A stretch of DNA of 49,795 nt, from assembly GCA_024711025.1 (NCBI GenBank), contig JANJTP010000034.1, positions 1 through 49,795 on the forward strand, read 5' to 3'. Under the pieces are notes generated by a model that was not told the origin of the DNA, searched no databases, and saw nothing but the letters and a program-made list of their open reading frames with translations. Within the stretch, counting starts at the first letter, position 1. Every line of letters starts with the position of its first letter. Shown here in pieces: positions 24,361 through 34,273 of the stretch. Made by a program: the position numbers and the translations under genes. The DNA is from Solirubrobacteraceae bacterium. Its GTDB lineage: Bacteria; Actinomycetota; Thermoleophilia; Solirubrobacterales; Solirubrobacteraceae.

Positions 24361-25763
24361 GCGAGGCCGGCGGCACCGGGCCGCGCAGCAGGTCGGCCCA
24401 GCAGCGCACCGCGCTCGTCTCGATCATCGCGGCAGCGGGCCTCGTCGCGCTGAAGCTCGTCGTCGGGCTGCTGTCCGGCTCGCTCGGCCTGCTCGCCGAG
24501 GCGGCTCACTCGGGCACCGACCTGATCGCCGCCGTCCTCACCTTCTACGCGCTCGGCGTCGCCGTAAGGCCGCCCGACGGGGAGCACCCGTTCGGCCACG
24601 GCAAGGCAGAGCACCTCGCGGCGCTAGGCGAGGGCGCCTTCCTCGTGCTGGTCAGCGGCGCCGTGGCGTACGAGTCGCTCGGCCGGATCCTCGGCGGGCA
24701 CACGGCCCGGATCGAGACGGCCTGGTGGGTCTTCGCGACGCTCGGCATCGTCCTCGCCGTCGACGTCACGCGCGCCGCCATCTCATGGCGTGCCGCACGT
24801 CGGCACGGCAGCGCCGCGCTCGCGGCCAACGCCGTGCACTTCGCGTCGGACTTCGCGGGGACGCTGGCGGTCCTCGTCGGCCTGCTGCTGGTGCGGGCCG
24901 GCGAGCCCAAGGCGGACGCGTTCGCCGCGCTGTTCGTCGCCGTGCTCGTCGTGAGTGCCGCGGTGCGGCTGATGCGCGGCAACGTCGACGTGCTCATGGA
25001 CCGCGCGCCGGCCGGCGCCGCCGAGCGCGTGCGGGCCGCGATCGAGCAGGTCGAGCCGCGGGCGGAGCTGCGCCGCGTCCGGGTGCGCGAGGCGGGCGGA
25101 CGGGCATTCGTGGACGCCGTCGTGGCGGTCGCGCCGGATTCCGCCCTCGCCCAGGGGCACGCGGTCGCGGACAGCGTCGAGCAGGCCGCTCAGGCCGTGC
25201 TGCCGGGCTCCGACGTCACCGTCCACGTCGAGCAGGCCGAGAGCGGCGACCTGCGCGAGCGCGTGACCGGTGCGGCCCTGTCCGCGCGCAGGGTGCGCGA
25301 GGTCCACAACGTCCGCATGGTCGACGTCGACGGGCGCACCGAGCTGAGCCTTCATGTCAAGCTGCCGCCGGCGCTGACGCTCGGGGAGGCGCACGGGGTC
25401 GCCGACGAGGTCGAGCGCGCGATCCGCGCGGTCGCGCCCGAGGTTGCGGGCGTGTACGTCCACCTGGAGCCGCTCGCAGGGGTGCAGACGGGGACCGCGC
25501 CGGCGCCGGCGGAGGACGACGCCCACCGCGATGCGCTTGCCGAGATCGTCCGCGCTCGCACCGGTCGCGCGCCGCGCGAGGTGCGCCTGCATCGCGAGGC
25601 GCGCGGCCTCGTCGCCTTCCTCACCGTGGAGCTGCCGGCGCAGGCGACGCTGGCCGAGGCGCATGCCGTGGCGGCACGGATCGAGGACCAGGCGCGGATC
25701 GCCGACCCCGGCATCGCCGAGGTCGTCGTGCACACCGAGCCGGGCGCGATCAGCGAAGGTTGA
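24342..25763 (+). CDS. CDF metal-efflux transporter with three C-terminal domains
   Basis: This 473-residue cation diffusion facilitator has six membrane helices (about residues 22-212). The metal-site motifs are H56-SGT-D60 in helix 2 and H166-FAS-D170 in helix 5, the pattern of zinc-type members. Normal CDF proteins have one cytoplasmic ferredoxin-like domain; here three follow one another (about 221-300, 301-380 and 393-467), each with a near-repeated block (QGHAVADSVEQ, EAHGVADEVER, EAHAVAARIED) and an ending strand with HVE, HLEP or HTEP. Its GTG start lies inside rdgB. Confidence 0.88.
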   Translation: MARRQLSEAGGTGPRSRSAQQRTALVSIIAAAGLVALKLVVGLLSGSLGLLAEAAHSGTDLIAAVLTFYALGVAVRPPDGEHPFGHGKAEHLAALGEGAFLVLVSGAVAYESLGRILGGHTARIETAWWVFATLGIVLAVDVTRAAISWRAARRHGSAALAANAVHFASDFAGTLAVLVGLLLVRAGEPKADAFAALFVAVLVVSAAVRLMRGNVDVLMDRAPAGAAERVRAAIEQVEPRAELRRVRVREAGGRAFVDAVVAVAPDSALAQGHAVADSVEQAAQAVLPGSDVTVHVEQAESGDLRERVTGAALSARRVREVHNVRMVDVDGRTELSLHVKLPPALTLGEAHGVADEVERAIRAVAPEVAGVYVHLEPLAGVQTGTAPAPAEDDAHRDALAEIVRARTGRAPREVRLHREARGLVAFLTVELPAQATLAEAHAVAARIEDQARIADPGIAEVVVHTEPGAISEG

Positions 25764-25804
25764 TGCGATCAGCGAAGGTTGATGCGATCAGCGCACGTTG
25801 ATGA
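25748..25804. repeat. Three-copy 19-bp tandem repeat at convergent gene ends
   Basis: GATCAGCGAAGGTTGATGC occurs at 25748-25766 and 25767-25785, with a diverged third copy at 25786-25804. The first copy encodes the last codons and stop of the CDF gene, and the third holds the stop of the minus-strand membrane peptide. It looks like a recent slippage duplication that may have set the gene's end. Confidence 0.85.
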
Positions 25805-31280: not shown

Positions 31281-31321
31281 CCACGCCCGTGGAGCGGCGC
31301 CATCTGAGCGACGAGCACGGC

Positions 31322-32923
31322 GTGGTCACCTCCGCCGTGGCCGCCACGGAGATCGCCGACGAGTCGGCGCCGATCGACGTCCCGCCGGCCGTCGACGAGA
31401 TCGTCGTCCTCGACTATGGCGGGCAGTACTCGCAGCTCATCGCGCGGCGCGTGCGGGAGCTCGGGGTCTTCAGCGAGCTCCTGCCGCACCACGTGGGAGC
31501 CGCCGAGGTCGCGCGCCGCCGGCCGCGGGGTCTCATCCTGTCCGGCGGGCCCGCCTCGGTGCACTCGCCCGGGGCGCCGCGGCTCGATCCCGAGCTGCTC
31601 GAGCTCGGGATCCCCGTGCTCGGCATCTGCTACGGGATGCAGCTCCTCGCCCGCGAGCTCGGCGGCACCGTCGAGGCCGCCGAGGTCGGCGAGTACGGGC
31701 GGTCGCAGCTGACGATCGGCGAGCCCGGCGTGCTGTTCGCCGGCCTGCCGCAGGAGCAGCCCTGCTGGATGTCGCACCGCGACACCGTCTTCTCCCCGCC
31801 GCCGGGCTTCACGGCGCTCGCGGCCTCCACGCAGTCGCCGGTCGCGGCGTTCGAGTCCAGCGAGCGCGGCATCTACGGCATCCAGTTCCATCCGGAGGTC
31901 GTCCACACGCCATACGGCCAGGAGGTGCTCACCCGCTTCCTGCGCGACGTCTGCGCCTGTGCGATGACCTGGTCCGCCGCGTCGATCGTCGAGGACCAGA
32001 TCGCCCGGATCCGCGAGCAGGTCGGTGACGGGCACGTGATCTGCGGCCTCTCGGGCGGCGTCGACTCGTCCGTCGCCGCGCTGCTCGTGCACCGCGCCGT
32101 CGGCGACCAGCTCACCTGCGTCTTCGTCGACCACGGCCTCATGCGCAAGAACGAGGGCGAGCAGGTCATCAGGACGTTCCGCGACACGTTCCACGTGCCG
32201 CTCGTGGCCGTCGACGCCGAGGAGCGCTTCCTCGCCAAGCTCGCCGGCGTCAGCGAGCCGGAGACCAAGCGCAAGCTGATCGGAGCCGAGTTCATCCGCG
32301 TCTTCGAGGAGGAGGCGGCCAAGCTCGGCGACGCGAAGTACCTCGTCCAGGGAACGCTCTACTCGGACGTGATCGAATCCGGCGGAGGGACCGGCACCGC
32401 CACGATCAAGAGCCACCACAACGTCGGCGGCCTACCCGACGACCTCGAGTTCGAGCTTATCGAGCCGCTGCGCTCGCTGTTCAAGGACGAGGTGCGTGCG
32501 GTCGGGCTCGAGCTCGGCCTGCCGGAGCGGCTCGTCTGGCGCCAGCCGTTCCCCGGCCCCGGCCTCGCGATCCGGATCGTCGGCGGCGAGGCGACCAAGG
32601 AGCGCCTCGACCTGCTGCGCGACGCCGACCACATACTCCAGGACGAGATTCGCCAGGCCGGTCTCTACCGCGAGCTATGGCAGTCCTTCTGCGTCCTCCC
32701 CGACGTCCGGACCGTCGGCGTCCAGGGAGACGAGCGCACCTACGGCTACGTCGTCGTCATTCGGGCCGTGACCAGCGACGACGCGATGACCGCGGACTGG
32801 GCGCGGCTGCCGTACGACCTGCTCGAGCAGATCGCCTCGCGGATGATCAACGAGCTGCGCGACGTGAACCGCGTGGTTCTGGACATCACCTCGAAGCCTC
32901 CCGGCACCATCGAGTGGGAATGA
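31322..32923 (+). CDS. guaA: GMP synthase (glutamine-hydrolysing)
   Basis: This two-domain enzyme aminates XMP to GMP. The amidotransferase half has [28 protein letters not shown] (nucleophilic Cys) and [12 protein letters not shown]; the synthetase half has the PP-loop [51 protein letters not shown] and the C-terminal KPPGTIEWE. The start is uncertain: GTG at 31322 gives 533 residues, close to the usual 515-525, while GTG at 31289 would add 11. Both follow guaB3 closely. Confidence 0.93.
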
Positions 32924-32925
32924 TC

Positions 32926-33241
32926 TGACGGCGTCTGCGGGCGCCTGGAGCCACCCACGGCCGGCCACCGTGCTAGCCGCACTATCGGCCGGCCGCGCGC
33001 GGCTCCATCCATCCCGCAGCCGCTCGTCAGCCTGACGGCGCCTGCGGGCGGCTCGCGCCACCCGTGACCGGCCACCGTGCTAGCGCACTATCGGCCGGCC
33101 ACGGTCGTCGCGAATCCATCCCGCAGCCACTCGCCAGATGGGGTTTCACGGGCCTCCGCGCCACCCGTGACCGGCCACCGTGCTGGCGCACTATCGGCCG
33201 GCCACGGTCGTCGCGAATCCATCCCGCGGCCACTCGCCGGA
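32926..33241. repeat. Three-copy ~103-107-bp intergenic repeat with conserved hairpin
   Basis: Units start near 32926, 33033 and 33139 and fill most of the 427-base gene-free gap after guaA. Copies 2 and 3 are nearly identical over their last 80 bases; copy 1 is more diverged. Each carries a hairpin: CCGGCC-ACC-GTGC, loop, GCAC-TATC-GGCCGG. It lies at 32961-32992, 33068-33098 and 33171-33201. The loops differ (TAGCC, TAGC, TGGC) while the stems are identical. Several frames are open across it, but none looks coding. Confidence 0.85.
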
Positions 33242-33350: not shown

Positions 33351-33740
33351 ATGGCCGATGTGGAGCAGGTGAACCTCGCCGAGCTCGAGGACGTGGCTCC
33401 GCGATTCGGGGTCGAGGGCGTGGAGTTCCGCGGTGCGCGCGAGGCGCTCGGCTGCGAGCGCTCCGGGCTGAGTCTCCAGCGGATCGCCCCGGGAGCGCGC
33501 CAGCCGTTCGGCCATCGCCACGGCGAGGAGGAGGAGATCTACGTGGTCCTCTCCGGCGGCGGGCGGATCCGGCTCGACGACGATGAGCGCGAGGTTCGTC
33601 CGATGGACGCCATCCGGGTCGCGCCGCGGGTCGCGCGGGCGTTCGAGGCCGGACCCGACGGCCTCGAGCTGATCGCGTTCGGCTCGCCGGGCGGGGGCGG
33701 GCGCGACGGCGAGATCCTGCCGGGCTGGTGGGGCGGCTGA
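33351..33740 (+). CDS. Cupin-2 domain protein
   Basis: The 129-residue single-domain cupin has [28 protein letters not shown] as its first motif (metal His, His, Glu) and [23 protein letters not shown] as its second, in which the usual His is replaced by Arg. Metal binding would rest on the first motif. Such proteins may be small isomerases, dioxygenases or sensors; no role can be set. It sits between the tandem repeat and rplM. Confidence 0.8.
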
Positions 33741-33838: not shown

Positions 33839-34273
33839 ATGAAGACTTACGTCGCCAATAACGAGACCCGCGAGCGCAACTGGCTGGTCGTCGATGCCGC
33901 CGGGCAGACGCTCGGCCGGCTCGCCACCCAGATCGCCGACGCTCTGCGCGGCAAGCGCAAACCCGAATACACCCCGCACGTCGACACCGGCGACTTCGTC
34001 GTCGTCGTCAACGCCGAGAAGATCTCGGTCAGCGGCAACAAGCGCCAGGAGAAGATGTACCGGCGCCACTCCGGGTATCCCGGCGGGCTGCGCGAGCGCA
34101 CGCTCGAGGAGATGCTCGCCCGCAGGCCCGAAGAGGTGATCCGCCTCGCGGTCAAGGGAATGCTGCCGCGTAACCGGCTCGCCCGAAAGCAGCTCACCAA
34201 GCTCAAGGTATACGCCGGCCCCGAGCACCCGCACGTGGCGCAGAAGCCGACCCCGATGGAGATCCAGTCCTGA
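33839..34273 (+). CDS. rplM: 50S ribosomal protein L13
   Basis: This 144-residue product is a standard bacterial uL13: [86 protein letters not shown] and [11 protein letters not shown]. It is the first gene of the usual rplM-rpsI operon. A TATCCT at 33783-33788 may be its -10, giving a leader of about 45 bases with no clear Shine-Dalgarno; a regulatory leader is possible but not identified. Confidence 0.96.

What the first reader, a model, noticed from the sequence alone, without database searches (positions are those of the whole stretch)
32926..33241. Three-copy intergenic repeat with a hairpin whose stem is fixed and loop varies
Three units of about 103-107 bp follow guaA. Every unit keeps the two-part stem CCGGCC/GGCCGG and GTGC/GCAC, while the loop reads TAGCC, TAGC or TGGC and flanks differ more in copy 1. 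Changes confined to the loop suggest selection on structure. It may be a new interspersed repeat family, a processing or stability element for guaA mRNA, or a protein-binding array.
Basis: seen in the sequence. Interest (0 to 1): 0.65.

Follow-up and report, generated by a model that had tools for sequence, protein, structure and literature searches.

The report
Stop-codon hairpin repeats in soil actinobacteria
The three repeats after guaA belong to a previously unlisted family of ~107-base hairpins, peculiar to one class of mostly soil actinobacteria, that sit right against gene stop codons in a fixed orientation and most likely act as gene-end (transcription-terminating or mRNA-end-protecting) hairpins.

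Summary
In detail: three ~105-nt units lie directly after the guaA stop codon. Each is one long hairpin. It is a genome-wide family: 24 model matches in this genome, many in tandem pairs or triplets, and relatives almost only within Solirubrobacterales (67 of 232 genomes in the order, a few more in the same class; in 396 genomes drawn from the phylum only six, all of the window's own family). The long arms vary with compensation (31 of 33 pairs change on both sides); the constant parts are the apical GTGC-N4-GCAC and its flanking mispairs. At 39 of the 40 non-MITE sites with a called gene end, the element abuts the stop codon of a gene it is sense to. At hppA the stem even contains the gene's last codons, and codon changes are matched in the opposite arm. 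Relatives carry ordinary hairpin or hairpin-plus-T6 terminators there. Best reading: a clade-specific, propagating 3'-end hairpin, terminator-like or mRNA-end protecting, related to a MITE core. Unexplained: the antisense strand pairs better.

The parts
31289..32923 (+). guaA (GMP synthase), whose stop codon TGA 32921-32923 abuts the array
   Evidence: Pfam GMP_synt_C and GATase; gene call
32923..33031 (-). Hairpin unit 1. Strand given is the better-pairing M strand; the complementary P strand is sense to guaA. First paired base about 32926
   Evidence: covariance-model match 110 bits, E 2.2e-25; fold
33030..33138 (-). Hairpin unit 2 (M strand given)
   Evidence: covariance-model match 108.1 bits, E 6.9e-25
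33133..33241 (-). Hairpin unit 3 (M strand given); 97% identical to unit 2 over 86 nt, left outer arm replaced
   Evidence: covariance-model match 78.8 bits, E 5.7e-17
32961..32992 (.). Apical core of unit 1: CCGGCC-ACC-GTGC-TAGCC-GCAC-TAT-CGGCCGG
   Evidence: sequence
33068..33098 (.). Apical core of unit 2, loop TAGC
   Evidence: sequence
33171..33201 (.). Apical core of unit 3, loop TGGC
   Evidence: sequence
33351..33740 (+). Downstream co-directional gene, small cupin protein, between the array and rplM (33839-34273); most congeners without the array have guaA directly before rplM
   Evidence: Pfam Cupin_2 and Ribosomal_L13; relatives' guaA 3' ends

Best explanation
The array is three units of a clade-specific family of ~107-nt palindromic elements that form gene-end hairpins. 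SHOWN: each unit is a long hairpin with compensated arms, a near-constant apex (GTGC-N4-GCAC with mispaired flanks) and two or three constant mispair sites. In the non-MITE ('class 1') form it lies against the stop codon of the gene to which one strand (P) is sense. It recurs at the same genes in different genera (guaA, sepF, hppA, sufB) or species (rpmB, secG, nrdJ). It can include the last codons of the gene in its stem. INFERRED: in the mRNA, the P-strand hairpin forms as soon as RNA polymerase passes the end of the gene; it stops transcription like the U-less ('I-shaped') terminators described for mycobacteria and/or blocks 3' exonucleases. Tandem units add strength. Propagation is by copying of units and dimers within the genome; the same core also travels inside IS5-like MITEs (class 2). 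Arms stay complementary through selection on pairing, probably helped by fold-back (template-switch) correction.
For:: strong folds; 94% of cells paired, 31 of 33 pairs with two-sided changes, covariation score 0.629 against 0.178 in shuffles and at most 0.10 when slid; 50 class-1 sites; of the 40 with a called gene end, 38 are sense to the abutting gene only, 1 antisense only, 1 both; offsets cluster at -5 to +6 nt from the stop. Class-2 sites show no bias (9, 10, 14); same genes occupied in different genomes (guaA in G000, G005, G157; sepF in G000, G033, G146; rpmB in G000, G005, G016; secG in G000, G005); hppA in four species, stem includes the last codons and stop, and codon changes (GTC to GTG or ATC, GCG to GCA) are matched in the other arm; at the same position relatives carry plain GC hairpins, and in genus g42 a hairpin followed by T6, i.e. 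a classical intrinsic terminator; within genus g18 one species (G070) has an unrelated hairpin in its place; in this genome strong U-less hairpins a few nt after stop codons are common and exceed shuffles. (PMC12288462): mycobacteria mainly use terminators without poly-U within 50 bp of the stop codon.
Against: No transcript data. No U-tract follows the hairpins, and whether U-less hairpins terminate is disputed (Czyz et al. 2014, cited in PMC12288462). Most congeners lack any copy at guaA and some lack the family, so it is dispensable there. The antisense (M) strand pairs better than the sense strand (on M, wobbles outnumber A-C mispairs 278 to 44, or 118 to 37 without three fixed columns), which a sense-RNA function does not predict; in the window's own genome the bias disappears outside the fixed columns (14 to 15). 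Part of the covariation could come from template-switch correction rather than selection: one array has 'perfected' arms (L024) and one copy is a chimera (L005:1587-1695).
Confidence: 0.5

Rival explanations
1. Selfish palindromic element without host function: class 1 consists of old or derived MITEs; they end up at stop codons because a TNA-type target (TAA, TGA, TTA, TAG) duplicated at the very end of a gene leaves the gene intact.
For: Class-2 relatives share the core and are plainly mobile: identical copies with 3-bp duplications TTA, CTA, TTG, TGA, TAA in G021, TAA in G102, TAG in G137; a DDE_Tnp_1 IS in G021 has a matching terminal repeat CTAGATGGTTGATTCC. In class 2 the gene's stop often is the duplicated target. 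Class-1 copies in G000 at different sites are 94-95% identical.
Against: Class 1 is almost always in one orientation (38:1), class 2 is not (9:10). No terminal repeats or target duplications were seen for the window's copies. Class 1 keeps a constant apex that class 2 lacks. Gene-end codons pair with the outer arm, which insertion of a fixed unit does not give. No Y1/RAYT transposase gene in this genome.
Confidence: 0.25
2. The M (antisense) strand is the working molecule: a structured antisense RNA, a terminator against antisense transcription entering the gene, or a single-stranded DNA hairpin used for strand-specific mobilisation, as for attC sites or REP/RAYT.
For: M folds better in nearly every copy examined, as RNA and, for two window units, as DNA; M-strand U-G/G-U pairs are fixed at two to three positions and otherwise exceed A-C mispairs in relatives (34 to 13 in class 1 outside G000; 68 to 9 in class 2); U-G at one column is replaced only by C-G or U-A. 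Ordinary transcription-linked mutation bias would give the opposite sign (inference).
Against: No bias outside fixed columns in G000 (14 to 15). The covariance model was built on M, so matches are biased towards it. No integron boxes in the consensus, no RAYT domain; no antisense promoter was recognised by eye, and none was tested by experiment.
Confidence: 0.15
3. A double-stranded DNA site for a chromosome-organising or regulatory protein, binding the constant GTGC-N4-GCAC apex.
For: Constant inverted repeat at the centre of every class-1 unit; arrays of two or three.
Against: Does not explain compensated arms of about 50 bp, the fixed mispairs or the strict position and orientation at stop codons.
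Confidence: 0.05

Closest known systems
REP/BIME palindromes (Enterobacteria, Pseudomonas)
   Same: Multi-copy intergenic palindromes, often close to stop codons and in clusters; in E. coli about half can stall ribosomes just before the stop (statement in PMC12306157)
   Different: Unit is ~107 nt, not 20-40; arms vary with compensation between sites; no conserved foot tetranucleotide seen; no Y1/RAYT transposase in this genome; stem can include coding bases
IS5-like MITEs of Solirubrobacterales (class 2 here)
   Same: Homologous hairpin core and size; also often at stop codons
   Different: Class 2 has ~28-bp terminal repeats, 3-bp target duplications, no orientation bias and no constant apex; the window's copies lack these repeats
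U-less ('I-shaped') intrinsic terminators of actinobacteria
   Same: GC-rich hairpin within 50 nt after the stop codon without a U-tract (PMC12288462; ordinary examples in this genome)
   Different: Ordinary ones are simple 30-50-nt hairpins unrelated to each other in sequence; these are a homologous repeat family with constant internal mispairs and apex
MIRU (mycobacterial interspersed repetitive units)
   Same: From own knowledge: ~50-100-bp tandem units oriented with the adjacent genes and overlapping stop codons
   Different: MIRUs are not long palindromes with compensated arms (own knowledge); no sequence comparison was made here

Membership tests
REP/BIME (RAYT-mobilised) | Multi-copy palindrome in intergenic regions | tested here: met
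   24 M-strand model matches in the genome, next to gene ends
REP/BIME (RAYT-mobilised) | Partner Y1/RAYT transposase in the genome | tested here: not met
   No PF01797 match in the own genome, 97% complete; controls rang
REP/BIME (RAYT-mobilised) | Conserved GTAG/GGAG-type tetranucleotide at the hairpin foot | tested here: not met
   None in the consensus or invariant columns
IS5-like MITE | Terminal inverted repeats and 3-bp target duplication | tested here: not met
   Present in class-2 relatives; flanks of the window's and other class-1 copies show none
IS5-like MITE | Homologous internal sequence | tested here: met
   Models R1/R2 align both classes over all 108 positions
Intrinsic terminator without U-tract | Stable hairpin within about 50 nt of the stop codon, sense strand | tested here: met
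Intrinsic terminator without U-tract | Transcripts end at the hairpin | not testable with these tools
   No transcriptome for this or a related genome at hand
Classical intrinsic terminator | Run of U directly after the hairpin | tested here: not met
   No T-run after the array on either strand
Integron attC site | R boxes RYYYAAC / GTTRRRY at the ends of a folded bottom strand | tested here: not met
   No such boxes in the consensus of 21 copies
Known RNA families (Rfam 15) | Match above a family's gathering score | tested here: not met
   No match; best permissive match E 0.08 to a microRNA precursor family, a chance long hairpin
MIRU | Sequence homology to mycobacterial MIRU units | not tested
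   No MIRU sequence was compared

The most novel reading that the evidence does not exclude
A mobile palindrome that settles on stop codons in one orientation and builds the last codons of its host gene into its own stem, so that a coding sequence and a non-coding arm evolve in concert, with the strand opposite to the mRNA as the folded, functional one (antisense RNA or single-stranded DNA intermediate): a new way for a repeat to spread without harming genes.
Probability: 0.15. Interest if true: 0.8.

Novelty: new variant of a known kind. Interest (0 to 1): 0.55.

Why it matters
It gives a clade of little-studied, mostly soil actinobacteria a homologous, recognisable gene-end element, with clear examples of ordinary terminator-like hairpins and a spreading hairpin standing in for each other. 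If it terminates transcription it is a natural, repeatedly evolved test of the disputed claim that GC-rich bacteria end transcription with hairpins lacking a U-tract. It also shows a repeat family obeying a strict stop-codon and orientation rule, and stems in which codons and 3' arms change together.

Tried and rejected
Rfam at gathering and permissive thresholds: nothing. RAYT/Y1 transposase in the own genome: none. Exact apex pattern over 84,980 genomes: ten hits, about the number expected by chance, one real (a Solirubrobacteraceae MAG). Idea that copies at the same gene in two species are simply inherited: for G000 and G005 they are no more alike than copies at other genes, although within genus g18 they are (0.87-0.93). 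Idea that the window's copies are bounded MITEs with target duplications: boundaries of class-1 copies do not show it. Idea that all class-1 hairpins extend far into the gene: only a minority do, by roughly 10-20 bp. Literature searches on Thermoleophilia or Solirubrobacter repeats, stop-codon MITEs and MIRUs gave no description of this family.

Full report
OBSERVATION. The window is contig C67 of a 3.14-Mb, 72-contig draft genome that is 97% complete. One congener, G005, matches a 'Solirubrobacteraceae bacterium' MAG contig by length and content (L085, JALOLQ010000055.1, 7970 bases), so the order is Solirubrobacterales, class Thermoleophilia. Three units start directly after the guaA stop codon (TGA 32921-32923), spaced 107 and 103 nt. 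Nearly the whole unit is one hairpin. Copies 2 and 3 are a 97% identical duplication.

FAMILY. BLAST found 21 matches in the genome; a covariance model from 21 copies (A1, R1) found 24 on one strand (the six opposite-strand rows in that list lie on the same palindromes). Copies lie singly or in arrays of two or three, at 13-14 places. A second model from 59 copies of many genera (R2) found 67 of 232 genomes of the order and four genomes of another family of the class. In 396 genomes drawn from the whole phylum it hit only six, all in the window's own family. The model is therefore specific and the family is restricted to this clade.

STRUCTURE. Between copies the arms differ widely but stay complementary: in A4, 94% of cells pair, 31 of 33 pairs have two-sided changes, and the covariation score is 0.629 against 0.178 for shuffles and 0.03-0.10 for slid partners; A1 alone shows the same. 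Constant parts, in M-strand letters, are GGGATGGATGACG, CGATAGTGC-loop-GCACGGTGG and GTCAGGCGCC. Caveat: a palindrome can also stay complementary by fold-back copying. In array C63 two units have their imperfect arm 'perfected' (L024), and unit 3 of the rpoC array is a chimera of two arm types (L005:1587-1695).

TWO CLASSES. Class 2 is the same core inside ~165-nt MITEs: in G021, G102 and G137 identical or near-identical copies have ~28-bp terminal repeats and 3-bp duplications (TTA, CTA, TTG, TGA, TAA, TAG), and a DDE_Tnp_1 element in G021 has the terminal repeat CTAGATGGTTGATTCC resembling that of other class-2 copies. Class 1, which includes all copies of the window's genome, lacks these repeats and has the constant apex.

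POSITION RULE. For 50 class-1 sites (first unit of each array), a simple codon-model gene caller found a gene end at the element in 40: 38 sense to the P strand only, one antisense only, one both, with offsets mostly -5 to +6 nt. Several of the ten uncalled sites show the same by eye (e.g. L107 rpmB, L090 guaA). Class 2 shows 9, 10 and 14, i.e. no orientation bias. The same genes recur: guaA in G000, G005 and G157; sepF in G000, G033 and G146; rpmB in G000, G005 and G016; secG and the 'LVREARxGLR' gene in G000 and G005; nrdJ in three congeners; hppA in genus g18 and in G021 (gene names partly from Pfam, partly by eye).

PAIRING WITH CODONS. At hppA in four species the stem includes the last codons and the stop. 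Changes of GTC to GTG, GTC to ATC and GCG to GCA in the gene are matched in the distal arm. Among 30 relatives, the same place holds the element, an ordinary GC-rich hairpin, no clear hairpin, or in two genomes of genus g42 a hairpin with a T6 tract; G070 (genus g18) has an unrelated hairpin where its congeners have the element. At guaA, relatives have the element, a short hairpin, a 135-nt hairpin variant (G019), or no hairpin where guaA is followed directly by rplM. In 400 kb of the window's genome plus the window, strong U-less hairpins a few nt after stop codons are more frequent than in shuffles. This is the main argument for a terminator-like role: the element occupies the terminator position and is exchangeable with ordinary hairpins there. 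It is an inference; no RNA data were available.

WHAT DOES NOT FIT. The strand that pairs better is the antisense one. Wobble pairs on that strand outnumber A-C mispairs 278 to 44, or 118 to 37 without three fixed columns. Split by class the figures outside fixed columns are 14 to 15 in G000, 34 to 13 in other class 1 and 68 to 9 in class 2. The model was built on that strand, so part of this is detection bias, and class-2 copies are not independent. I treat it as unresolved.

LIMITS. The gene caller is crude; the assemblies are drafts; E-values of the models are rough; at most about 1,275 genome searches were made; no experiment was possible. VERDICT: a real, clade-restricted repeat family with a clear position and orientation rule; new as a family, of a known general kind (gene-end palindromes); terminator-like or 3'-end protecting function likely but unproven.

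Noticed in passing
L166 (G000:C58:23404-23465), L167 (C63:32240-32290), L173 (C17:442-483) and about 35 further places in the window's genome: A second, unrelated palindromic repeat of about 46 nt (GCGGCTGCAG...CCATACCTGAG...CTGCAGCCGC), 38 BLAST matches in the genome, several at gene 3' ends and some next to or inside arrays of the 107-nt family.
   Followed up: partly
L195-L199, L201 (G021), L206-L208 (G102), L211-L212 (G137): Recently mobile MITEs with a homologous hairpin core and 3-bp target duplications that often coincide with stop codons, including both stops of convergent gene pairs.
   Followed up: partly
L003, L009, L014, L016 (G000): Truncated half-copies of the element that break off near the hairpin apex, following a full copy in the same array.
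   Followed up: no
window 25746-25803: A 19-bp tandem repeat (GCGATCAGCGAAGGTTGAT), three copies, 94% matches, an AT-richer stretch in a GC-rich window.
   Followed up: no
L275 (G078), downstream of hppA: Tandem ~60-nt GC-rich hairpin repeats of another kind directly after the hppA stop codon.
   Followed up: no
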